From Yersinia intermedia (GTDB lineage: Bacteria; Pseudomonadota; Gammaproteobacteria; Enterobacterales; Enterobacteriaceae), in the NCBI RefSeq assembly GCF_900635455.1, contig NZ_LR134116.1:2170001-2234000 (forward strand): DNA of 64,000 bases, given 5' to 3'. Every line of letters starts with the position of its first letter. The stretch's first letter is position 1. The notes beneath the pieces were generated by a model. That model saw only the letters and a list, made by a program, of their open reading frames with translations. It had not been told where the DNA came from and searched no databases. The translations under genes were made by a program, and so were the position numbers. Positions 9,353 through 45,910 of the stretch are shown piece after piece.

Positions 9353-10863
9353 TGACATCCTTTAAGGGCATTGAGTCTGATAGCAGTTCCAAAGCAGAGA
9401 ACCCGTCTGAGTTTGAGGATGCTCCTCAATTTAATAATAGCTACGGGCAGCAACTCAGCGGTTTTTATACTTACTTGCAGCCAACACCGTTAAGGGGAGC
9501 ACACTTGCTGTACCATAGTGCCCCTTTGGCGCAGGAGCTTGGGCTGGATGAGAGTTGGTTTAGTCTGCCGAAAGCCGCCATATGGGCTGGAGAGGCTTTG
9601 TTATCAGGTATGGAACCGCTGGCACAAGTATATAGCGGTCACCAGTTTGGTGTATGGGCGGGGCAGCTTGGCGACGGTCGTGGCATTTTGCTGGGGGAAC
9701 AGCAGCTCAGTGATGGTCGCAGTATGGACTGGCATCTGAAAGGTGCAGGGTTAACACCTTATTCCCGCATGGGGGATGGGCGGGCAGTTTTGCGCTCAGT
9801 TGTCCGTGAGTTTTTAGCTTCCGAAGCATTGCATCATTTAGGAATACCTACCAGCCGCGCACTGACCATCGTTACCAGCGAACATCCAGTCTACCGTGAG
9901 CAAGCGGAGCGAGGCGCTATGCTATTGCGGGTGGCTGAAAGCCATGTTCGCTTCGGCCATTTTGAACACTTCTATTATCGTCAGCAGCCTGCACAGGTTA
10001 AACAGCTAGCGGACTATGTGATTGCCCGCCACTGGCCACAATGCGTCGGGCAAGCAGAATGCTACTTGTTGTGGTTTACTGATGTGGTAAAACGCACGGC
10101 GCGTTTAATCGCCCAGTGGCAAACAATCGGTTTTGCTCATGGTGTTATGAATACCGATAATATGTCGATTCTTGGTATTACTATGGACTATGGTCCATTT
10201 GGTTTTCTGGATGACTATGTTCCGGGATATATTTGCAATCATTCCGATCATCAAGGGCGCTATGCATTCGATAATCAACCAGCGGTCGCATTATGGAACC
10301 TGCATCGGCTAGGGCAGGCGCTGTCCGGCTTAATGTCGGTGGAACAGTTGCAGTTGGCACTGAGCGCTTACGAGCCAGAGTTAATGGCAGCTTACGGCCA
10401 ACAGATGCGCGCTAAATTAGGTTTCGTCGAAAGCAGCAGTCAAGATAACGAACTACTGACAGAATTATTGAGTTTGATGACCCAAGAGGGCCGAGACTAT
10501 ACCCGCACATTCCGTTTGTTGAGTCAGGTTGAAATGCATTCGGCACAATCGCCGCTACGTGATGATTTTATCGATAGAGCCGGTTTTGACAGTTGGTACA
10601 GTCGTTATCGTGCACGTTTGCAACAAGAACCGATTGACGATGCTCAGCGTCAGTATTTGATGAAAGCAGTGAACCCGAAATATATATTGCGTAACTATCT
10701 GGCACAGCAAGCGATCGACCACGCCGAAAAGGATGATATTCAGCCATTGCAGCGCCTGCATCAGGCATTGCAGCACCCTTTTGCCGAACAGCCTGAATTT
10801 GATGATTTAGCTAAGTTACCTCCAGATTGGGGGAAACATCTGGAGATATCTTGCTCCAGTTAG
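9352..10863 (+). CDS. selO: Protein adenylyltransferase SelO (YdiU)
   Basis: SelO is a pseudokinase-fold enzyme that transfers AMP from ATP to hydroxyl side chains of proteins. Motifs include [11 protein letters not shown] near residue 105, [22 protein letters not shown] near 130 and [11 protein letters not shown] near 280. The C-terminus is Cys-Ser-Ser, where animal SelO has selenocysteine-Ser-Ser, so this is the usual bacterial cysteine form. The ATG at 9352 overlaps the lplA stop; a TTG one codon earlier is also in frame. The 503 residues include an N-terminal extension of about 25 residues compared with E. coli. Confidence 0.94.
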
Positions 10864-10870
10864 TCACTAT

Positions 10871-10897
10871 CGATGGCAGGGATATTCCCTGCCATCG
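10871..10897 (+). terminator. 12-bp perfect hairpin between convergent selO and hmuT
   Basis: The sequence is a perfect 12-bp inverted repeat with a TAT loop (arms CGATGGCAGGGA / TCCCTGCCATCG), starting 8 bp after the selO stop. Only a short T-rich stretch follows on the plus strand. It lies between convergent genes and could act in both directions. Confidence 0.6.
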
Positions 10898-10948
10898 TAT
10901 TCCTCTGGGCACAAAGAGGGTTACAACCCGTGCAAAAACGCTTTCGTA

Positions 10949-11764
10949 TCAATCGGGTTGCGCCGCAGCACGCAATTGTTTCATTACCGCTGGCGTGTGA
11001 AGGCCGAAACTCAATAATGCTCTATCATCCAGTATTAACACCTGACGTTGCTGACCCGCTGGGGTAAGCGCAATTCCGGGAATGCGCCAGACGTTATCAA
11101 CCCCGCCCAGTGATATCACCCCATGAGTGGTCATAATCAGCAAATCTGGCGCACTGGCAATAATCCCCTCCTGTGACAGCGGGCGGTAGCCTGTAAACTC
11201 ATGTATCGCATTCTTAAGTCCAGTACGACGAAATAAGGTATCGGCAGGGGTGTGCGTACCGGCCGCCAGTGGCGGGATCCCAGCATGACTCATAATAAAT
11301 AAGACCTTGACCGGCAAAGGCGTAGACATGATCTCTGCCAGTTGTTGCTGATAATGCTGTATCAGTTGCTGGCCTTTTTGTGCTTGATTCAACGTGGCGG
11401 CAATCAGTTGTATTTTAGCGGGCACCCCTTCTGGCGTGGTATCCACTGGGATATAGACCACGTTGATTCCGCTTGCCTCAACTTGGCGCAGCGCGCTTGA
11501 AGCGGATGCGCGCGTGGTGCTTAACACCAGTGTCGGTTTTAAAGCGAGAATGCCTTCAGTATTGAGTTGCCGCATAAAACCCACATCCGGTAATTCTTTT
11601 AGCGCTTCAGGGCTAACACTGGCGCGATCTCTGGCAACAATATAGGCACCTACGCCTAATGCGTAGGTGATTTCAGAGACATCGTTACCGATAGTGATAA
11701 TCCGTTGACTCGCCTGACAGTTTACCGCGATAACGACAGTAAATATCAACAACCATTTATTCAT
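10949..11764 (-). CDS. hmuT: Heme ABC transporter substrate-binding protein, HmuT/HemT-like
   Basis: This is a 271-residue periplasmic binding protein with an N-terminal signal peptide ending near residue 18 (CQA). It has the two-lobed fold pattern of heme-binding ABC transporter proteins (VSEITYALG, PLSQEGIIASAPDLLIM). Compared with remembered Y. pestis HmuT, the second heme-ligand position His160 (IMSHAG) is kept. The first ligand Tyr of the GYMR motif is Phe63 here (GFMR), while the adjacent Arg65 remains. The gene overlaps hmuS by 8 bp. No hmuU permease or hmuV ATPase follows: the next gene is convergent selO. It may need a permease encoded elsewhere, or may bind a different ligand. Confidence 0.85.
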   Translation of the reverse strand: MNKWLLIFTVVIAVNCQASQRIITIGNDVSEITYALGVGAYIVARDRASVSPEALKELPDVGFMRQLNTEGILALKPTLVLSTTRASASSALRQVEASGINVVYIPVDTTPEGVPAKIQLIAATLNQAQKGQQLIQHYQQQLAEIMSTPLPVKVLFIMSHAGIPPLAAGTHTPADTLFRRTGLKNAIHEFTGYRPLSQEGIIASAPDLLIMTTHGVISLGGVDNVWRIPGIALTPAGQQRQVLILDDRALLSFGLHTPAVMKQLRAAAQPD

Positions 11765-12818
11765 GTGTTGACTCTATAACCGTTAATTCTGCGAGTTGTT
11801 CAATCCACTGACTTTGCTCGGATTGACCTTCATTGCGCTGACCAAACACTTGTAAGATATGCTTACCCTGGTTATCGAGGAGTTCCAGACTTGAGATATA
11901 ACCGTCCTTGGTGGGTTTGCGTGTTACCCAAATCTCTGCAATGGCATCTTTGTTTAAATACAGATTAAAGCGCTGATTAAGCACATTAATCGACAGTTGT
12001 TCGTCGGCATGTGTATTCCGTTCGACTATTAATTGTTCAATTACGCCGGTGAATATCTGTATACACCCACTGTTACCGACAAATAGCATTATCTCGTTCT
12101 GACGAGCTTGTGCCGCACGAAGTATTTGACTCAGTGACTGGTTATCAACCTGAAACGCCAAATCGTCGCCGACAGCACGGAAAGCCTGTTTACGGGTAAT
12201 TTTGTGGCGTTTCAATAGCATAAAGAATTGATGGATATCATTCATTTTGCGCCACTCAGCATCAATAAGGGCGTTATTGAGAGGTGCTGTACCGCTGAGT
12301 TCCTGATCCCTGGGGTGTAGGACCAGCGGAGTGTTATCCGTGGCACGATATTTAGTCACTAATGCTTGCCAGGCATTAAGATCTGTCTCACCGATGCAAT
12401 AGATTTGATGGATTGGATTACCCTGAAGATCAAAGCATTGAATACTATGTTGCTCACCTTGCGGTGTTGTCTCACACAGACTAAAAATGGCATCCCATTG
12501 GCGGAAAAACAGCCTTAAATCCAGGGCGCGTGGGTTAAGAATCAAGCCAAGGTGACCATGTAAACGCAAATTCTGATACTCACCGATTATCTCATGTCGC
12601 GCGCATTGATTGGCAGTGACCGACTTTGTTACCCCCACATGCGCTAATTCTGCCAACAATACGCTGGCACTGATATTTAAGCGTTCCATATCATGGCCGA
12701 CACGGGCATATGCCAACTCTGCTTCGCTGACATTCAGGCTTTCTGCTAAATCACAGGTGGGTAATTGAGGGTTGAGCTGCTTTGCGCTCAGGTAACGTTG
12801 ATACAGTGACATTTCCAT
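11757..12818 (-). CDS. hmuS: Cytoplasmic heme-handling protein, HmuS/HemS-like
   Basis: Proteins of the HemS/ChuS/HmuS family bind heme in the cytoplasm after import and act in heme delivery or degradation. The 353 residues form two repeated halves. The heme ligand His196 (in NDIHQFF) and Arg102 (in DLRLFF) fall at the same numbers as in Y. enterocolitica HemS, so the heme site looks intact. The sequence is clearly diverged from the HemS/HmuS copies remembered for the main Yersinia heme operon, so this is likely a paralogue. It overlaps hmuT and follows hmuR by 132 bp. Confidence 0.88.
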   Translation of the reverse strand: MEMSLYQRYLSAKQLNPQLPTCDLAESLNVSEAELAYARVGHDMERLNISASVLLAELAHVGVTKSVTANQCARHEIIGEYQNLRLHGHLGLILNPRALDLRLFFRQWDAIFSLCETTPQGEQHSIQCFDLQGNPIHQIYCIGETDLNAWQALVTKYRATDNTPLVLHPRDQELSGTAPLNNALIDAEWRKMNDIHQFFMLLKRHKITRKQAFRAVGDDLAFQVDNQSLSQILRAAQARQNEIMLFVGNSGCIQIFTGVIEQLIVERNTHADEQLSINVLNQRFNLYLNKDAIAEIWVTRKPTKDGYISSLELLDNQGKHILQVFGQRNEGQSEQSQWIEQLAELTVIESTHE

Positions 12819-12950
12819 TTATTCATTCCTTTAAGATAGTGCCGCAACCCGTGTTATCGGATACGGCAGGTGTCCTTGGAACCACTCAATATGGTTCGTT
12901 AAGTATGGTGGCTTTCCAGATCAGGCGCTATATACAGTTTGGGTGAAATA

Positions 12951-14981
12951 TCACCATTGATAGCTGATCAGTAATTTGGCATTACGTCCATCCTGTGGGA
13001 TTGCTTGTGGTGAGTAATGCACTTTATTGAATGCATTACCCAATACTGCGGTGGTGGTGATGCCATTCAAGGAGCCTTGCCCACGGTAGCTTAGGTAAAA
13101 GTCATGAACCGCATAGCCTGCTTGCGGCGCATAGGGGCGGCGTGACGATGTTTTGGCATCATTATTTTTCATAAATTTGGTGTTTTCAGCCATGGTTAAT
13201 ACCCAACCGGCGTTAAAACCGCTGCTCGCAATGGGGACATTAAGCCTGCTGGTGACGGTATCTGGATTGATACTGTTAATGAATTGGCGGGTGTCGAGAT
13301 TAATAGCACGGGTACGGTTATAGGCCAGCGTCCAGTCAAACCATTGATTTTGGTAGTCCAGCGCTGCATCCCACCCCCAGCTTTTACTGCGCGGGATATT
13401 GATGTAGCCGGAGTAATTCTTACCAAAAAATTCGGTGTGGACTTCACTGGTGATACGGTCTTTGGCATCAATACTGAAGTAGCTGGCTTTGAATTCAACC
13501 GAATCATCATTGGACAATAATTGATCAAATGTCAAACCAAAACCCGCTTCGCGAGTGACGTTACTTTCGGGTTTTAGATTTGGATTGGGTCTCCAGCGAT
13601 TGGCAAAAGGCCCCATAGAAAAATGGATTGAATCATTATAAAGCTCAGTCAGCGTTGGCGTACGGAACGCCTGACTGTAGGCACTAAACAACATCAGCCA
13701 ATCAGTGGGTTTGAGGGTAACGGCTCCTTGAGTTGACCAATTTTTAGCTTCCCTATCAGCAAAACCGTTGCGGCTGTTTTTATAACTGTCGAAGCGGCTG
13801 CCTACCAGTAAGGTAATGGGTAAATCACGCAGTGTAACTTCGTCTTGTAACCAACCGGAGGAGAATTTGATTTCAGCGGGGGGGAAACTACGAATAACAC
13901 CGCTCGGAACTTGCTCTTGATGATAGGTTTCGATGCCATAAGTGAATACATTTGCTGCGGGGCTGTGGGTAAATAGCATGCTGTTATTTTCCAGCTTTAA
14001 ACCTCGGGTGATCTGTTTTCGGCGGCCATAGCCCTCACGATTGACGTTATCACTAATACTGATTTCGGAATGATAGAGTCGGGTGGTGGCATCCAGCCAG
14101 TCAAGGTGTTGTGGTTGCAGGCGGTAGGTTAATTCAGCATCACGTTGAAGGGTGGAACGATTCATCATTGGATTTTTATTAAATCTTAAGTCAGGCGCAC
14201 TAAGATTAGCCATGCGCGGTTCTAGCGCTTGGTTATTGTAATAACGCAGGGCGGTGGTTAACGACTGGCTGCCAGAAAGAGCGGCGGTGCCTTTAAACAT
14301 CAGGCTGTTAATCGTTTCATCATTCGGCGCTTCATTACCGTTGCCGTGGTAAGTATTGCCGACCTTACGTTTGCTTAGCGCGATAATGCCGTCAAGATGC
14401 TCTGTGCGGCCAAAAACGGACATCCCGGAGCCGATACTATGATAACCCGTGGCCCCATAGCCGCTAACTCGGAAGCCAAGATTTTGGCCATCTGCCAGCA
14501 AGTCGGCCGCATCAACAGTTTGGTAAGCAATCACCCCGCCCATGGCGCCACTGCCAAACCTTGATGTTGATGGGCTACGAATGACGCTGATTTGCTTTAT
14601 CAGGGCCGGCTCAAGGAAGGTACCATTGATATTGGCACCATTAATGCCCTGACGAATACCATCGACCAGCACCATAACGCCATACTGATCATACCCCCTG
14701 AGATTTATATTTTGCCCGTTGGTGCGCCCAACACCGCCCACACTCACACCCGGTACGTTTTGCAGCATTTCTGCGGCGGTGGTGGCGGTTTGTTTTTGTG
14801 GCAATCTGGCATCAATGACGGTAACTGTGCCAGGGGTGCTAAAACTGTCCGTCACCGCTTGAGTTCCAGTAACCACCAGGGTGTGATTCTTACTCGTAGA
14901 TGCTGAGTGAGCTGTTGCCAGTGGGGATAGCGCTACGGTTATCGCCACACTGCATAAAGACAAACGAAAAAAACGAAGCAT
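12951..14981 (-). CDS. hmuR: TonB-dependent heme/hemoglobin-type receptor, HmuR/HemR-like
   Basis: This is a 676-residue outer-membrane receptor with a signal peptide (cleavage near residue 27), a plug domain at about 35-150 and a beta-barrel ending in the typical C-terminal aromatic residue (SYQW). FRTP (439-442) and NPNLKPES resemble the FRAP/NPNL motifs of heme receptors. His453 matches the barrel histidine of HmuR/ShuA. The plug histidine of the GHLN motif is replaced by Asn117 (GANIN). The ATG at 14981 is preferred because GGAGAG lies 6 bp upstream; a TTG at 14987 abuts it. The gene is downstream of hmuP and the Fur box. Confidence 0.9.
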   Translation of the reverse strand: MLRFFRLSLCSVAITVALSPLATAHSASTSKNHTLVVTGTQAVTDSFSTPGTVTVIDARLPQKQTATTAAEMLQNVPGVSVGGVGRTNGQNINLRGYDQYGVMVLVDGIRQGINGANINGTFLEPALIKQISVIRSPSTSRFGSGAMGGVIAYQTVDAADLLADGQNLGFRVSGYGATGYHSIGSGMSVFGRTEHLDGIIALSKRKVGNTYHGNGNEAPNDETINSLMFKGTAALSGSQSLTTALRYYNNQALEPRMANLSAPDLRFNKNPMMNRSTLQRDAELTYRLQPQHLDWLDATTRLYHSEISISDNVNREGYGRRKQITRGLKLENNSMLFTHSPAANVFTYGIETYHQEQVPSGVIRSFPPAEIKFSSGWLQDEVTLRDLPITLLVGSRFDSYKNSRNGFADREAKNWSTQGAVTLKPTDWLMLFSAYSQAFRTPTLTELYNDSIHFSMGPFANRWRPNPNLKPESNVTREAGFGLTFDQLLSNDDSVEFKASYFSIDAKDRITSEVHTEFFGKNYSGYINIPRSKSWGWDAALDYQNQWFDWTLAYNRTRAINLDTRQFINSINPDTVTSRLNVPIASSGFNAGWVLTMAENTKFMKNNDAKTSSRRPYAPQAGYAVHDFYLSYRGQGSLNGITTTAVLGNAFNKVHYSPQAIPQDGRNAKLLISYQW

Positions 14982-15097
14982 AAGCAACTCTCCATATGTT
15001 ATTAAACATAATCAATAAGTTGCTGGCTGCCTGAGTATTCAATATAAGGTGGCTGGCGTAGTGGAAATTCTTTCAAAATAGGCGCTAACGACCCAAA

Positions 15098-15286
15098 TCA
15101 CTTGGTCAGTATCAGTTTACCTGCTTTGGTTTGGCGCAAATAATAGAGCTGCCCTTGGTGATTGATCATCACTACATCATGTTGGCCAAGCAGTTGTCCG
15201 CTGTTGATACAGGATAATTGCAAAACAGCAGAGTTTTGCTCTGGTGCGCAGTTTACTGTTTGAATAGGATAGATGGCTTTGTGCAT
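15098..15286 (-). CDS. hmuP: Hemin uptake protein HmuP/HemP family
   Basis: This is a 62-residue protein of the HemP/HmuP family, found as the first gene of many heme-uptake operons and implicated in their expression. The family signature is the C-terminal stretch GQLYYLRQTKAGKLILTK. It lies upstream of hmuR and just downstream of a Fur box, consistent with an iron-repressed first gene. E. coli keeps only this gene, as ydiE, at the same position between aroH and ydiU. Confidence 0.88.
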   Translation of the reverse strand: MHKAIYPIQTVNCAPEQNSAVLQLSCINSGQLLGQHDVVMINHQGQLYYLRQTKAGKLILTK

Positions 15287-15317: not shown

Positions 15318-15336
15318 GATAATGATTATCATCTCC
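15318..15336 (-). promoter_or_regulatory. Fur box upstream of hmuP
   Basis: Read on the minus strand, this 19-mer matches 16 of 19 bases of the Fur consensus GATAATGATAATCATTATC. It lies 32 bp before the hmuP start, in an AT-rich promoter region. The rest of the 253-bp gap between hmuP and aroH shows no gene. Confidence 0.8.
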
Positions 15337-15539: not shown

Positions 15540-16586
15540 TCAAAACCGACTACTGACCGCATCCGCCAGCAAGCTCAATAATTGCTCAGTATCCGCCCAG
15601 TTTAGGCACGGATCGGTGATGGACTGCCCGTAGGTCAAGGCTTGGCCTGCAACAATTTTCTGCGTGCCTTCAATCAGGAAGCTTTCAGCCATCACACCTA
15701 CAATCGCGGTAGATCCGGCACGAATTTGCTGCCCGATATCAGCGGCAACTTCCAATTGGCGGCGGTGCATTTTCTGACAATTACCATGGCTGAAATCAAC
15801 CACCAGATGTTCAGGTAAATCGAACTCACGCAGGCTGTCACAGGCAGCGGCAATATCTGATGCGCCATAATTAGGTTTTTTGCCTCCACGCATAATAATG
15901 TGCCCATGCGGGTTGCCACTGGTTTGGTAAATAGTCATCTGGCCGTTTTTATCTGGCGATAAAAACATATGACTGGCCTGTGCGGCACGGATAGCATCAA
16001 TTGCAATGCGGGTATTGCCGTCGGTGCCATTTTTGAAACCAACCGGGCAGGAGAGGGCCGATGCCATTTCTCGATGAATCTGGCTTTCCGTGGTACGTGC
16101 GCCAATAGCCCCCCAACTGATCAGATCAGCAATGTACTGGCCCGTCACCATATCAAGGAATTCGGTGGCAGTAGGTAGACCTAACTCATTAACTGCCAGT
16201 AACAGTTTGCGCGCCATCTCGATCCCAAGATTGACCTGACATGAGCCATCCAACGCAGGGTCAGAAATCAGCCCTTTCCAGCCCACTACGGTGCGCGGTT
16301 TCTCGAAATAGGTGCGCATGACAATTTCCAAACGATCCTGATAGCGCTCACGCAATACATTCAGCCGCGTGGCGTAGTCAATGGCGGCATCAAGATCGTG
16401 AATCGAGCAAGGGCCAACCACCACCAGCAGGCGTGAGTCTTCACCGGTGAGTATTTTTTCAATTCGCTTACGTGACGCTGTCACGTTATCTGCTATCCCC
16501 TCGGATATCGGCAACTTTTCCGCCAGTTGTTGTGGCGTGATTAAGCTATCGATGCGCGCGGTCCGCAGTTCATCTGTTTTATGCAT
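15540..16586 (-). CDS. aroH: 3-deoxy-7-phosphoheptulonate synthase AroH
   Basis: This enzyme condenses phosphoenolpyruvate with erythrose 4-phosphate, the first step of aromatic amino acid synthesis. It is a type I DAHP synthase with GPCSIHD near residue 58, FEKPRTVVGWKGLISDP near 94 and DFSHGNC near 266. The sequence follows the tryptophan-sensitive E. coli isozyme AroH closely (348 residues), and the neighbours ppsR, ppsA and hemP/ydiE agree with that. I did not see a convincing TrpR operator upstream. Confidence 0.93.
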   Translation of the reverse strand: MHKTDELRTARIDSLITPQQLAEKLPISEGIADNVTASRKRIEKILTGEDSRLLVVVGPCSIHDLDAAIDYATRLNVLRERYQDRLEIVMRTYFEKPRTVVGWKGLISDPALDGSCQVNLGIEMARKLLLAVNELGLPTATEFLDMVTGQYIADLISWGAIGARTTESQIHREMASALSCPVGFKNGTDGNTRIAIDAIRAAQASHMFLSPDKNGQMTIYQTSGNPHGHIIMRGGKKPNYGASDIAAACDSLREFDLPEHLVVDFSHGNCQKMHRRQLEVAADIGQQIRAGSTAIVGVMAESFLIEGTQKIVAGQALTYGQSITDPCLNWADTEQLLSLLADAVSSRF

Positions 16587-20295: not shown

Positions 20296-20373
20296 GCAAT
20301 AATGAGTAAAAAAAAGCCCGTCTTAGATGACAGGCAAAGACTACACACAGCAATACGTATTTCGATTACAGAT

Positions 20374-20409
20374 ATTTAAATAACTCACTTGAAAATGAGT
20401 TATTTAAAT
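20374..20409. repeat. 14-bp perfect inverted repeat between ppsA and ydiK
   Basis: Arms at 20374-20387 and 20396-20409 are perfect complements, with an 8-base loop. The arms are AT-rich and no T-run follows on either strand. It lies in the 445-bp gap between convergent ppsA and ydiK, which also holds the ppsA terminator and a weak GGGGTT/AACCCC stem at 20639-20667 near the ydiK end. I see no gene in this gap. Confidence 0.6.
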
Positions 20410-20675: not shown

Positions 20676-21779
20676 TTAAAGCTCTTCTAAATGTTTGGCA
20701 ACTTCTTGAATACTCTCTTCAGGTTCCGGTGCTTCGTTGACCCAAGCTGAGGTCAGACGATAGGAAATAGCTAACACCACCGGCCCAATAAACAAGCCAA
20801 TCATGCCGAATGACAACAAGCCACCAATCACCCCGGACAGGATGAGAATCATCGGCATATCAGCTTCCATTCGGATAAGGTAGGGGCGCAAAACGTTGTC
20901 CATGGTGCCAACGATACAGCTCCAAATTAGCAGTGCGGTGCCCCAGGTGGTATCCCCCGTCCAATACAACCAGATAATCGCCGGGACCAGTATCAACAGT
21001 GGCCCAAGCTGAGCTACGCAGCAGATAAACATTAAGACAGTAAACAGTGTGGCGTATTGAATGCCGGCAATCGCCAGACCAATACCCCCCAGCACGGCCT
21101 GTACCAGCGCGGTAACCACTACGCCTAACGCAACGGCACGGATAGCTTTAGCGGCCAGCACCACGACGCCATCGCCACGTTTGTCGGCAGCGCGCACCGC
21201 GAAATGGCGGATACCTAAGCCGACTTGCTCACCATGGAAATAGAGTAAAACACTGAATAGCACCATTAGCGCCAGATGAATCAAAAAGTAACCGACGTGG
21301 GCGGCTTGAGCTACCAGCCAGGTCGCCGCCGCACCAATGTAGGGTTGAACTTTGGCGATCATCGCATTGCCACCACCAGCAACCAAAGTATGCCAACTAC
21401 TGTAGAGTTTGTTCCCCACCATCGGAATCGATTGCAACCAGGTTACATCTGGCATGCGCAAATTAGACGGGCTGGATGCCCACTGGATAAGCGGGCCGCT
21501 GTTTTCCACTAAGCTGCTGACCAGCAATGCTATCGGAATGACAAACAGCAATATCAACAACAGAGTCATGACAATAACGGCCAGCCAGCGCTTACCCCAA
21601 AGGAGCTTTTGCAACCTAATCAGCAAGGGCCAGGTTGCAATAACGACCATGCCAGCCCAGGCAAAACCCATAATAAAAGGTTGTACCACCCAAAAACTGG
21701 CGATAATCATTATCATAATGAATATCACCCCAAACATCAGTTTAGGTAAATCGAAACGGCGCTGTTGTGGGTAATTCAT
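20676..21779 (-). CDS. ydiK: AI-2E family inner-membrane transporter-like protein YdiK
   Basis: YdiK is a polytopic inner-membrane protein of the AI-2E transporter/PerM family; its substrate is unknown. About eight hydrophobic helices are visible, with the family motifs ALVQAVLGGIGL and ILSGVIGGLLSFGMIGLFIGPVVLA near the C-terminus. The ATG at 21779 gives 367 residues, close to the 370 of E. coli. An upstream in-frame ATG at 21842 would add 21 polar residues with no counterpart, so the shorter form is preferred with some doubt. Confidence 0.87.
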   Translation of the reverse strand: MNYPQQRRFDLPKLMFGVIFIMIMIIASFWVVQPFIMGFAWAGMVVIATWPLLIRLQKLLWGKRWLAVIVMTLLLILLFVIPIALLVSSLVENSGPLIQWASSPSNLRMPDVTWLQSIPMVGNKLYSSWHTLVAGGGNAMIAKVQPYIGAAATWLVAQAAHVGYFLIHLALMVLFSVLLYFHGEQVGLGIRHFAVRAADKRGDGVVVLAAKAIRAVALGVVVTALVQAVLGGIGLAIAGIQYATLFTVLMFICCVAQLGPLLILVPAIIWLYWTGDTTWGTALLIWSCIVGTMDNVLRPYLIRMEADMPMILILSGVIGGLLSFGMIGLFIGPVVLAISYRLTSAWVNEAPEPEESIQEVAKHLEEL

Positions 21780-22195
21780 CAGTGGGTTCTCACATCGAAA
21801 GTCATGGCAAGGTGGCCATCGCACTGTTTTCTCGGCACTCATTAGCTTTCGGACTAATCAAGTATCTGTAGTAATCATGGTGTATTTCTTAATGTTTTAA
21901 CAGACAACACCGGATTTTACTGCTGTGATTTATTAAAAAAAAAGCATTAGCTTGGACACAATAAAACGCCAACTGCAACCAAAGCGCTGAAACAATGTTC
22001 TTTCGGGCTGATGCGGCTATTATTTGTACAATATATAATTTTGATACTTAATGATTTATTGCCGCATTTATCCTCGGCAGATACGCATCACTTTCTCATC
22101 ATTCTGAATTGGCATAAATTATTCGACAAAGGTGATTGCTAGCAGATAATCTCTTGGCGGAACCCCAAACATACCTATTAGATAGGGTCACACTA
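21780..22195. other. Divergent ydiK-ydiJ intergenic region
   Basis: This gap of about 415 bp between divergent ydiK and ydiJ must hold both promoters. It is AT-rich around 21900-22060. An in-frame TTG reading reaches back to 22136 but has no family support. I see no RNA gene or clear operator here. Confidence 0.5.
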
Positions 22196-25842: not shown

Positions 25843-26196
25843 GGCTTCAATCGCTCACAGTGATCCCCCATCCCCTTTAGACTGTTTCATTTAGCCAATA
25901 AATGTGGCGAATCTCTATGATAGGTTTCCCCTGTGAGGGTTTTCAGCTAAAGTTAACAGAGAAATAGGTATTTTTTATGAATGTTTTAAATACTCAGAGA
26001 CTGACTGCGATTAGCCTCTGAGATAGCAAGGGATTCGAGCATCGTCGGGGAATTTATTCATTTATTTCATGGCGATAAAAGTGCACATTTTCCCTCAGAC
26101 CTCTTCAGGCCATCGCAGCATGCTTATTCGTTGCCGCCTCATTCGAGGTTCAAACGGCACTTTTCTTAATATCCCTGCAAAACAAACGGTTGAAGT

Positions 26197-26215
26197 GATA
26201 ATTATTATCACTACC
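26197..26215 (+). promoter_or_regulatory. Fur box in the sufA promoter
   Basis: This 19-mer matches 15 of 19 bases of the Fur consensus and lies about 100 bp before the sufA start. Repression of suf by Fur is established in E. coli. Sites for IscR, OxyR or IHF may also be present, but I could not place them with confidence. Confidence 0.7.
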
Positions 26216-44612: not shown

Positions 44613-44883
44613 GCAATACTCGAAAACCACTCAGACACAAACACGATATTAGGCTGGGAAGTTGAATCAGCGGGTTGTCTGAAAGTATTTATTGGACGTT
44701 ATTAGTCGGTATGCAGTTATGAACTGCGAATTTTGTCTGATCTGGAGGAAAAGTGAAAGGGGTAATCAAAGTTATAAAGTGCGTAATGAGCACAAGATTT
44801 TTTTTCTGAACTGTGGGAAAATAATTTAACACACTAACTATGTGCCTTTATCTTACTACAAACTAACCGGCTAAGGAGTTTTT

Positions 44884-44973
44884 ATGGATACCAATCTGAA
44901 AATGTCGCTGATTACGACTGTTGGTGCGCTGGCGATGATTATTGTCTTTAGCTTCGTGGCAGTAATGAATTAA
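44884..44973 (+). CDS. ynhF: Small inner-membrane protein YnhF-like
   Basis: A 29-residue hydrophobic peptide with a single membrane segment starts at ATG 44884, behind a good AAGGAG site. Length, position between purR and sodB, and the pattern M-x-T-x-L-K-x-S-L-x-T-T match the E. coli YnhF small protein. Its role is unknown. A GC-rich terminator follows at 45005. Confidence 0.85.
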   Translation: MDTNLKMSLITTVGALAMIIVFSFVAVMN

Positions 44974-45004
44974 TTGAGCCGCTTGCCGGTGTGAAGTGAT
45001 AAGT

Positions 45005-45066: not shown

Positions 45067-45645
45067 TCAGGCTAAATTTTTCTCAACGAAAGACCAGTTA
45101 ACCAGTGCCCAGAAGTTCTCCAGGTATTTTGGTCGCGCATTGCGGTAATCAATGTAGTAAGCATGTTCCCACACATCGACAGTTAACACCGGTTTATCAG
45201 TGGTGGTCAGTGGTGTTGCTGCATTAGATGTACTGACAATCGCCAGCGTGCCATCTGCTTTTTTAACCAGCCAGGTCCAGCCAGCGCCAAAGTTTTTTAC
45301 TGCCGCATCAGTAAACTGTGCTTTAAATTCAGCAAAAGAACCAAATGACTGATTAATAGCATCGGCAACCTTACCCGTAGGTTCGCCACCACCATTAGGT
45401 GACAGGCAATGCCAGTAGAAGGTGTGGTTCCAGACTTGGGCCGCATTGTTAAATACCCCACCATTAGAGGTTTTTACAATCTCTTCCAACGTCTTACCCG
45501 CAAACTCCGTGCCTTTAATCAGATTATTGAGGTTAACCACATAGGTGTTGTGATGCTTACCGTAATGGTATTCCAGTGTTTCAGCTGAAATGTGGGGTTC
45601 TAGCGCATTTTGCGCATAAGGTAATGCCGGTAATTCAAAAGACAT
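45067..45645 (-). CDS. sodB: Iron superoxide dismutase
   Basis: SodB dismutates superoxide in the cytoplasm. The iron ligands are visible in [11 protein letters not shown] (His27 region), NHTFYWHCL (His74 region) and [13 protein letters not shown] (Asp and His near 157-161). FGAGWTWLV is typical of the Fe form. The ATG at 45645 gives 192 residues and has GGAGAG upstream; a longer reading from 45687 was rejected. Confidence 0.97.
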
Positions 45646-45910
45646 AGCTCTCTCCTTTCGGGGTTGCTCAGGGTGTTTGCTCCTCAAATCACATCAATTG
45701 CCGTTGGCAGCTATGTGGCGAAGAGCGGTTAAAGCTTAATTGTTGTATTTTTGTTGTGGGTATTAATCTTAACAACTTTCATCAGGAATGACAGAGATAA
45801 CCTCACTGTTTGATGAGCGATAGCGTGAAAGTCATACAACGGGTTTAACACGTGAAGGGGCTTATTGTGCTATAGGCACCCGGTGGTGCTACCGGGCGCA
45901 AACTGAAGTC

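What the first reader, a model, noticed from the sequence alone, without database searches (positions are those of the whole stretch)
10949..15286. Heme-uptake-like cluster without permease and ATPase genes
hmuP, hmuR, hmuS and hmuT are present in the order of Yersinia hem/hmu operons, behind a good Fur box. hmuT is followed directly by convergent selO, with no hmuU or hmuV. The proteins are clearly diverged from the remembered main HmuRST/HemRST set, so this looks like a second system. It may borrow the permease of another locus or do something other than import.
Basis: partly seen in the sequence, partly recalled or inferred. Interest (0 to 1): 0.7.

Follow-up and report, generated by a model that had tools for sequence, protein, structure and literature searches.

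The report
Native Yersinia heme locus without permease
This Yersinia genome keeps an old, shortened heme-uptake gene cluster at the site where relatives carry the complete version, while a complete second copy elsewhere probably supplies the missing membrane pump.

Summary
In detail: intact hmuP, R, S and T behind a Fur-like box, 85 bp from convergent selO, without hmuUV. A complete hmuPRSTUV lies elsewhere in the genome (50-56% identity). The locus class is published: hemPRST-2 of Y. enterocolitica (PMC6158557), whose authors already suggested that HemR2 may use the other operon's transporter.

New here: the aroH-selO slot is the ancestral hmu site. Three deep-branching Yersinia genomes, and 11 of 20 loci from other genera, have hmu genes with UV there. 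Across 25 Yersinia genomes the slot holds PRSTUV in 3, PRST in 16, PR in 2, nothing in 3; one lacks selO. Trees join the window copy with the deep-branching slot copies (94/94) and reject it as sister of the complete operon (AU p 0.0005). So the 'second' system is the native one and the complete operon probably came later. Slot genes evolve faster but under purifying selection. Two heme-ligand positions are lost only in the slot lineage (HmuT Tyr70 in 2 of 16, HmuR plug His in 5 of 18; both in the window). The S-T block is a recombinant mosaic.

Best reading: a displaced native locus kept as an accessory set feeding the HmuUV of the complete operon.

The parts
15318..15336 (-). Fur-box-like site upstream of hmuP2
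   Evidence: 16/19 to a recalled consensus; 3 positions this good in 64 kb on both strands; 14-17/19 starting 46-56 bp before hmuP in 17 of 17 other slot loci with hmuP
15098..15286 (-). hmuP2 (hemP), 62 aa
   Evidence: Pfam hemP 58.1 bits; NCBIfam NF007559 below its cut-off
12951..14987 (-). hmuR2, TonB-dependent heme/hemoglobin receptor, 678 aa; plug heme-ligand position (His128 of HemR) is Asn, codon at 14631-14633
   Evidence: NCBIfam TonB-hemin over cut-off; solved relatives 9dir and ShuA 3fhh; column check
11757..12818 (-). hmuS2, HemS-type cytosolic heme protein, 353 aa; the His that I recall as the heme ligand of HemS is kept
   Evidence: HemS domains; HemS 2j0r/2j0p match; column check
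10949..11764 (-). hmuT2, periplasmic heme-binding protein, 271 aa; Tyr70 position is Phe (codon 11576-11578), His167 position kept
   Evidence: Peripla_BP_2; aligned to solved HmuT 3md9/3nu1; column check
10864..10948 (.). hmuT2-selO junction, 85 bp, the place where hmuUV stand in deep-branching relatives
   Evidence: hmuUV in the slot of L070-L072
9349..10863 (+). selO (name recalled), conserved neighbour of the slot
15540..16586 (-). DAHP-synthase-like gene called aroH here (name recalled), neighbour of the slot on the other side
10864..13000 (.). hmuS2-hmuT2 block: 62-74% DNA identity per 250-bp bin to the nearest species (35% in the bin with the R-S gap) against 84-95% outside, one outside bin at 77%: recombinant segment
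   Evidence: conflicting R and S+T trees

Best explanation
The window holds the native hmu (heme uptake) locus of the genus. A complete hmuPRSTUV operon once stood in this aroH-selO slot, as it still does in deep-branching Yersinia. In the ancestor of the other species a second complete operon became established elsewhere. The slot then lost hmuU and hmuV. Its receptor (HmuR2), periplasmic binding protein (HmuT2) and cytosolic heme protein (HmuS2) stayed as an accessory set behind a Fur box. Shown: gene content, slot homology, graded gene loss between species, tree placement, faster but purifying evolution, substitution of two heme-ligand positions. Inferred: the order of events; that HmuR2 brings heme into the periplasm; that HmuT2 and/or the HmuT of the complete operon pass it to the HmuUV of that operon; and that HmuS2 handles it in the cytosol. 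The receptor is probably the part that matters most, because the two genomes with the shortest remnant keep hmuP-hmuR only.
For: Slot states in 25 Yersinia genomes: PRSTUV and no other hmuT match 3, PRST 16, PR 2, empty 3, no selO 1. All 22 genomes without UV in the slot (G002 included) have a complete hmuPRSTUV elsewhere. 11 of 20 loci fetched from 20 other genera have hmuT, U and V between aroH and selO; 6 of these 11 also show hmuR there. R+S+T tree: slot copies with deep-branching slot copies 94/94; slot + complete operon rejected p 0.0005; deep-branching + complete operon p 0.0003; all three as one clade p 0.013. U+V tree: deep-branching + complete operon p 0.014. selO+aroH control keeps the 24 Yersinia rows together, 100. 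dN/dS in ten chosen species pairs is higher in the slot copy in 29 of 29 computable gene-pair values (30 tried): 0.07-0.21 against 0.01-0.10. Both positions that I match to the permease-docking Glu pair of BhuT (E94/E231; PMC5136619 passages) are kept in 16 of 16 HmuT2. Published: HemR2 of Y. enterocolitica lets an E. coli hemA mutant use hemin and hemoglobin, less well than HemR1 and as single colonies only (PMC6158557 section 23).
Against: No experiment tests HmuT2 with HmuUV. The window's HmuT2 has Phe for the ligand Tyr70 and its HmuR2 lacks the plug His, so neither need bind heme as the classical proteins do. By plain identity the deep-branching slot copies are closer to the complete operon (R 66-70%, T 69%) than to the window (R 56-57%, T 58-60%); the tree reads this as fast evolution of the slot copy. 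The long stem of the slot clade (0.56-0.66) invites tree error. In the wider tree two outgroup loci outside the slot (L156, L160) fall between the slot copies and the deep-branching Yersinia copies, and I dropped them with L164 for the tests, which were run after that tree was seen. The slot + deep-branching node is 94/94, below the tool's star. The test against one Yersinia clade (p 0.013) is modest. The donor of the complete operon was not found: best outside identity for its HmuT is 70-71% in 392 genomes of the family.
Confidence: 0.68

Rival explanations
1. Changed role: the slot receptor and its partners now serve a different ligand or step (another tetrapyrrole, another hemoprotein, heme buffering or sensing) and do not just add heme to HmuUV.
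For: Tyr70 position lost in 2 of 16 HmuT2 and plug His lost in 5 of 18 slot HmuR, against 0 of 45 and 0 of 38 rows outside the slot lineage. 23 receptor columns identical in at least 37 of 38 reference rows are switched in all 18 slot receptors, 12 of them at residue 158 or before (one in the signal peptide), some next to the ligand loop. Long stem branch, then purifying selection. Exchange of the S-T block.
Against: HemS His kept 16/16, His167 position of HmuT kept 16/16, barrel His kept 18/18. HemR2 of Y. enterocolitica still delivers heme. 13 of 18 slot receptors keep the plug His and 14 of 16 HmuT2 keep Tyr. The plug enrichment is weak and post hoc (Fisher p 0.016).
Confidence: 0.17
2. Slow decay: a redundant relic being lost gene by gene without a role that selection sees now.
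For: Graded states PRSTUV, PRST, PR, empty; an in-frame stop in the slot hmuR of one draft genome (G017); relaxed constraint and lost ligand residues.
Against: dN/dS far below 1 in every computable gene and pair, 0.07-0.21 (several dS values above 1 are rough); open frames for P, R, S and T in 15 of 16 genomes; conserved Fur box; retention of PRST in 16 of 25 species.
Confidence: 0.1
3. One reading: a separately acquired second heme system placed beside selO.
For: 50-56% identity to the complete operon (local values) looks like a separate system.
Against: The same slot holds the only and complete hmu operon in deep-branching Yersinia and hmu genes with UV in other genera; trees.
Confidence: 0.05

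Closest known systems
hemPRST-2 (hem-2 locus) of Yersinia enterocolitica Ye9 and 8081 (PMC6158557; abstract, passages, sections 21 and 23, section 28 part 1 of 2 read)
   Same: Same four genes in the same order, no UV, Fur-box promoter, a complete hemPRSTUV-1 elsewhere, similar P/S/T identities between the two loci (52/53/60% there, 49/52/57% here)
   Different: The paper reports conserved histidines in HemR2, but the window HmuR2 lacks the plug His and its HmuT2 lacks Tyr70. HemR1-HemR2 identity is 62% there, 50-53% here. Chromosomal position and history were not discussed in the parts I read
hmuRSTUV/hemPRSTUV of Yersinia pestis and Y. enterocolitica
   Same: Homologous P, R, S, T; HmuT structures 3md9/3nu1 and HemS 2j0r/2j0p match
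   Different: No permease and no ATPase gene in the window cluster; diverged, faster-evolving proteins
chu/shu heme systems (ShuA 3fhh, solved outer-membrane receptor 9dir, heme/hemoglobin transport protein 4cdp/1u9t)
   Same: Same receptor and cytosolic protein families by sequence
   Different: The plug ligand His is replaced in the window receptor

Membership tests
hmu/hem heme-uptake operon (PRSTUV) | TonB-dependent heme receptor gene | tested here: met
   TonB-hemin over its cut-off
hmu/hem heme-uptake operon (PRSTUV) | Periplasmic heme-binding protein with ligand Tyr (Tyr70) | tested here: not met
   Family met, but the Tyr70 position is Phe in the window; His167 position kept
hmu/hem heme-uptake operon (PRSTUV) | HemS-type heme protein with ligand His (residue recalled) | tested here: met
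hmu/hem heme-uptake operon (PRSTUV) | Permease (U) and ATPase (V) genes in the operon | tested here: not met
   85 bp junction to selO; no FecCD hit within the cluster
hemPRST-2 locus class | Genes P-R-S-T in this order, no UV, with a complete operon elsewhere in the genome | tested here: met
hemPRST-2 locus class | Orthology to the Y. enterocolitica locus at the same chromosomal place | tested here: inconclusive
   16 of 25 Yersinia genomes share the slot and the class. Loci of six named species (Y. aldovae, Y. thracica, Y. vastinensis, Y. frederiksenii, Y. proxima, Y. artesiana) encode the receptor. Ye9 itself was not compared letter by letter
hemPRST-2 locus class | Fur control | tested here: inconclusive
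   Site present and conserved; expression not testable here
Heme import through HmuUV of the complete operon | HmuT2 docks on HmuUV | not testable with these tools
   Only the presumed docking Glu positions were checked, kept 16/16

The most novel reading that the evidence does not exclude
After a complete operon took over heme import, the native locus was freed of its permease and its receptor and binding protein were retuned, by loss of axial heme ligands and by exchange of the S-T block between species, to capture something other than ordinary heme, such as another metal or metal-free tetrapyrrole, or to act as a heme buffer or sensor. The pair of ligand losses in the window would be the first visible sign.
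Probability: 0.15. Interest if true: 0.65.

Novelty: new member of a known kind. Interest (0 to 1): 0.42.

Why it matters
It turns round the usual naming. The well-studied Yersinia hmu operon appears to be the newcomer, and the little-studied hem-2 cluster appears to be the ancestral locus, reduced to different degrees in different species. That gives a natural series (PRSTUV, PRST, PR, empty) in which one can ask which parts of a heme importer stay useful once a permease is available from elsewhere. It also gives a case where heme-ligand residues drift in a retained uptake protein.

Tried and rejected
Rejected: an acquired second system (slot synteny and trees); hmuUV debris in the junction (no room). 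Orphan hmuUV in the genome: of the 11 FecCD hits, one is hmuU of the complete operon; one I read as btuC from its neighbours; four lie in two permease pairs with their own binding-protein and ATPase genes; two lie in one 667-aa ORF and three are weak, and these five hits (four places) I fetched or listed but did not annotate. Names btuC, selO, aroH, lplA, nlpC, suf and MocR are recalled.

Considered: that loss of Tyr70 and the plug His marks the whole slot class. Not so: 14 of 16 and 13 of 18 keep them. That G002, G005 or G015 is Y. pestis: their HmuT sequences are close to but not identical with the solved Y. pestis HmuT, so this stays open.

Tried for the origin of the complete operon: no genome outside Yersinia closer than 70-71% for its HmuT in 392 of the family. 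A receptor match to HmuR2 at E 1e-230 or better occurs in Yersinia only (6 of 392 genomes). The gene to the right of the complete operon is present without hmu beside it in 2 of 3 deep-branching genomes (G009, G016); in G021 only distant paralogues matched. The ABC gene to its left was found in 2 of 5 genomes sought, and the left flank differs among the three genomes looked at, so it marks no insertion site.

Dropped rows: L157 (fused R/S) from the R+S+T trees; L156, L160 and L164 (long or outside the slot), and 13 of 22 complete-operon rows, from the AU-tested tree; L156 and L164 from the U+V tree, where L160 lacks a V match. The wider tree that keeps L156, L160 and L164 is. The 20 other-genus loci were picked by hand from the best HmuT hits (69 of 149 genomes matched, 2 of them Yersinia), so they are not a random draw. 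The ten species pairs for dN/dS were chosen by hand. No structure was predicted.

Full report
OBSERVATION. The window lies at 2,170,001-2,234,000 of a single 4.76-Mb contig. The genus is Yersinia: the six loci are all from named Yersinia species, and the lengths of their six contigs recur among the same-genus genomes fetched. Four ORFs in the order hmuP-hmuR-hmuS-hmuT stand on the - strand at the stated coordinates, and selO converges from the other side 85 bp after hmuT. Families are as named. By sequence the nearest solved proteins are HmuT 3md9/3nu1, HemS 2j0r/2j0p, a heme/hemoglobin receptor 9dir and ShuA 3fhh. There is no hmuU or hmuV in the cluster.

THE OTHER COPY. A complete hmuPRSTUV operon lies at about 4.284-4.290 Mb. 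It is the only other hemS locus of the genome, and its hmuU is the best of the 11 FecCD hits. Identity between the copies is 50% (P), 53% (R), 53% (S) and 56% (T) over the aligned columns (local BLAST values 49/50/52/57).

THE SLOT. In 25 genomes of the genus, the window's included, I read the interval between the aroH-like gene and selO. State 1, complete hmuPRSTUV and no other hmuT match at E 1e-20: 3 of 25 (G009, G016, G021). State 2, hmuPRST: 16 of 25, window included. State 3, hmuPR only: 2 of 25 (G005, G015). State 4, empty, with 121-167 bp between the neighbours: 3 of 25 (G013, G014, G022). One genome (G002, 94% complete) has no selO match, and its two aroH-like hits are too distant to mark the slot. 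The 21 genomes of states 2-4 and G002, 22 in all, carry a complete operon elsewhere. Outside the genus, of 20 loci from 20 genera picked from the best HmuT hits, 11 have both neighbours around hmuT, U and V (6 of them with hmuR, 5 without an hmuR match in between), 5 show one of the two flanks and 4 show neither. hmuU is present in 20 and hmuV in 19. So the slot is the old hmu site and the window's cluster is its remnant.

TREES. On R+S+T, with 37 rows, the 16 slot copies join the 3 deep-branching slot copies (94/94). Holding slot and complete-operon copies together is rejected (p 0.0005), as is deep-branching + complete operon (p 0.0003). One clade of all three, a duplication inside Yersinia, is rejected less strongly (p 0.013). 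U+V gives p 0.014 for deep-branching + complete operon. selO+aroH, the control, keeps the 24 Yersinia rows apart from the 10 outgroup rows. Against this: with 53 rows two non-slot outgroup loci fall between the slot copies and the deep-branching Yersinia copies; the slot stem is long; by plain identity the deep-branching copies are nearer to the complete operon than to the window copy; and the tests were run after a first tree had been seen. I therefore treat the native reading as well supported by position and reasonably supported by trees. The source of the complete operon was not found. The gene on its right exists without hmu beside it in 2 of 3 deep-branching genomes.

SELECTION AND RESIDUES. 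In all 120 pairs of the 16 species the slot copies of R, S and T are more diverged than the complete-operon copies. dN/dS in ten chosen pairs is 0.07-0.21 in the slot and 0.01-0.10 in the complete operon; 29 of 30 gene-pair values are computable and all 29 are higher in the slot, though several dS values above 1 are rough. Aligned with the solved HmuT, the Tyr70 position is Phe in the window and in G017 (2 of 16) and Tyr in 45 of 45 others. The His167 position is kept in 16 of 16, and in 44 of 45 others. The plug His (His128 of HemR) is Asn in 4 of 16 PRST slots and 1 of 2 PR slots, the window among them, and His in 38 of 38 other receptors. The barrel His (His461) is kept in 18 of 18. The HemS His that I recall as its heme ligand is kept in 16 of 16. 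Y70, His128 and His461 are named in PMC6449446 (passages), which prints position 167 as R167 and mentions a histidine in the pocket. That position 167 is His I take from the solved chain and from recall. The docking Glu pair described for BhuT (PMC5136619 passages) is conserved at the positions that I take as equivalent, 16 of 16. 23 receptor columns identical in at least 37 of 38 reference rows are switched in all 18 slot receptors, with weak enrichment in the first 158 residues (Fisher p 0.016, post hoc).

MOSAIC. Against the nearest species by selO (G008), DNA identity in 250-bp bins is 84-95% outside (one bin 77%) and 62-74% inside 10,751-12,750, with 35% in the bin that spans the R-S gap. 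HmuR2 is 90% identical, HmuS2 67% and HmuT2 65%. The R tree joins window and G008 (100) and rejects G008 + G001 (p 0.002). The S+T tree joins G008 with G001 (100) and rejects window + G008 (p 4e-24) (quick trees). So the S-T block was replaced by recombination in one of the two lineages; G008 taking a G001-like block is the simplest reading, not shown.

REGULATION. A Fur-box-like site stands 32-50 bp before hmuP2 and is kept in 17 of 17 other slot loci with hmuP at 14-17 of 19 matches; the 22 complete operons have 14-16 of 19.

KNOWN WORK. PMC6158557 (abstract, passages, sections 21 and 23, section 28 part 1 of 2) describes hemPRST-2 in Y. enterocolitica. It reports an operon with a weak promoter, repression by iron and Fur (iron repression of the hem-2 promoter seen only at 26 C), OmpR repression, and HemR2 that supports hemin and hemoglobin use in an E. 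coli hemA mutant, less efficiently than HemR1. It also notes that hemUV2 is absent and does not exclude that HemR2 uses the ABC transporter of hem-1. The cluster and the borrowing idea are therefore in print. My searches listed no paper that I recognised as treating its ancestry, slot or ligand loss. They cover the open-licence library only; apart from the four papers named here I saw listings.

CONCLUSION. The locus is real and belongs to a published class. The evidence recasts it as the native, reduced hmu locus, kept as an accessory set that most likely works through the HmuUV of the complete operon. The double loss of heme-ligand positions in the window species leaves room for a changed ligand or role.

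Noticed in passing
window 10864-13000: The hmuS2-hmuT2 block is a recombinant segment relative to the nearest species, with both ends near gene borders.
   Followed up: yes
L118 (G015) and L119 (G005), slot: Two Yersinia genomes keep only hmuP-hmuR of the slot beside a complete operon elsewhere.
   Followed up: partly
L055 (G017), slot hmuR: An in-frame stop interrupts the slot receptor gene in this draft genome; described only.
   Followed up: no
G016:C1:361363-362784: The regulator gene that flanks the complete hmu operon in other species has an in-frame TAA in this deep-branching genome.
   Followed up: no
L157 (G040): In one genome outside the genus a truncated hmuR match runs straight into a partial hmuS match, with T, U and V matches behind.
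   Followed up: no
window 45616-45734, 20306-20409, 44625-44976: Rfam matches over the gathering score: SodB 5' UTR thermometer, RprA sRNA, STnc550 sRNA.
   Followed up: no
window 21696-21726 and 26191-26215: Two other Fur-box-like clusters, one at the start of a permease-like ORF (20676-21842), one ahead of genes I read as suf (names recalled).
   Followed up: no
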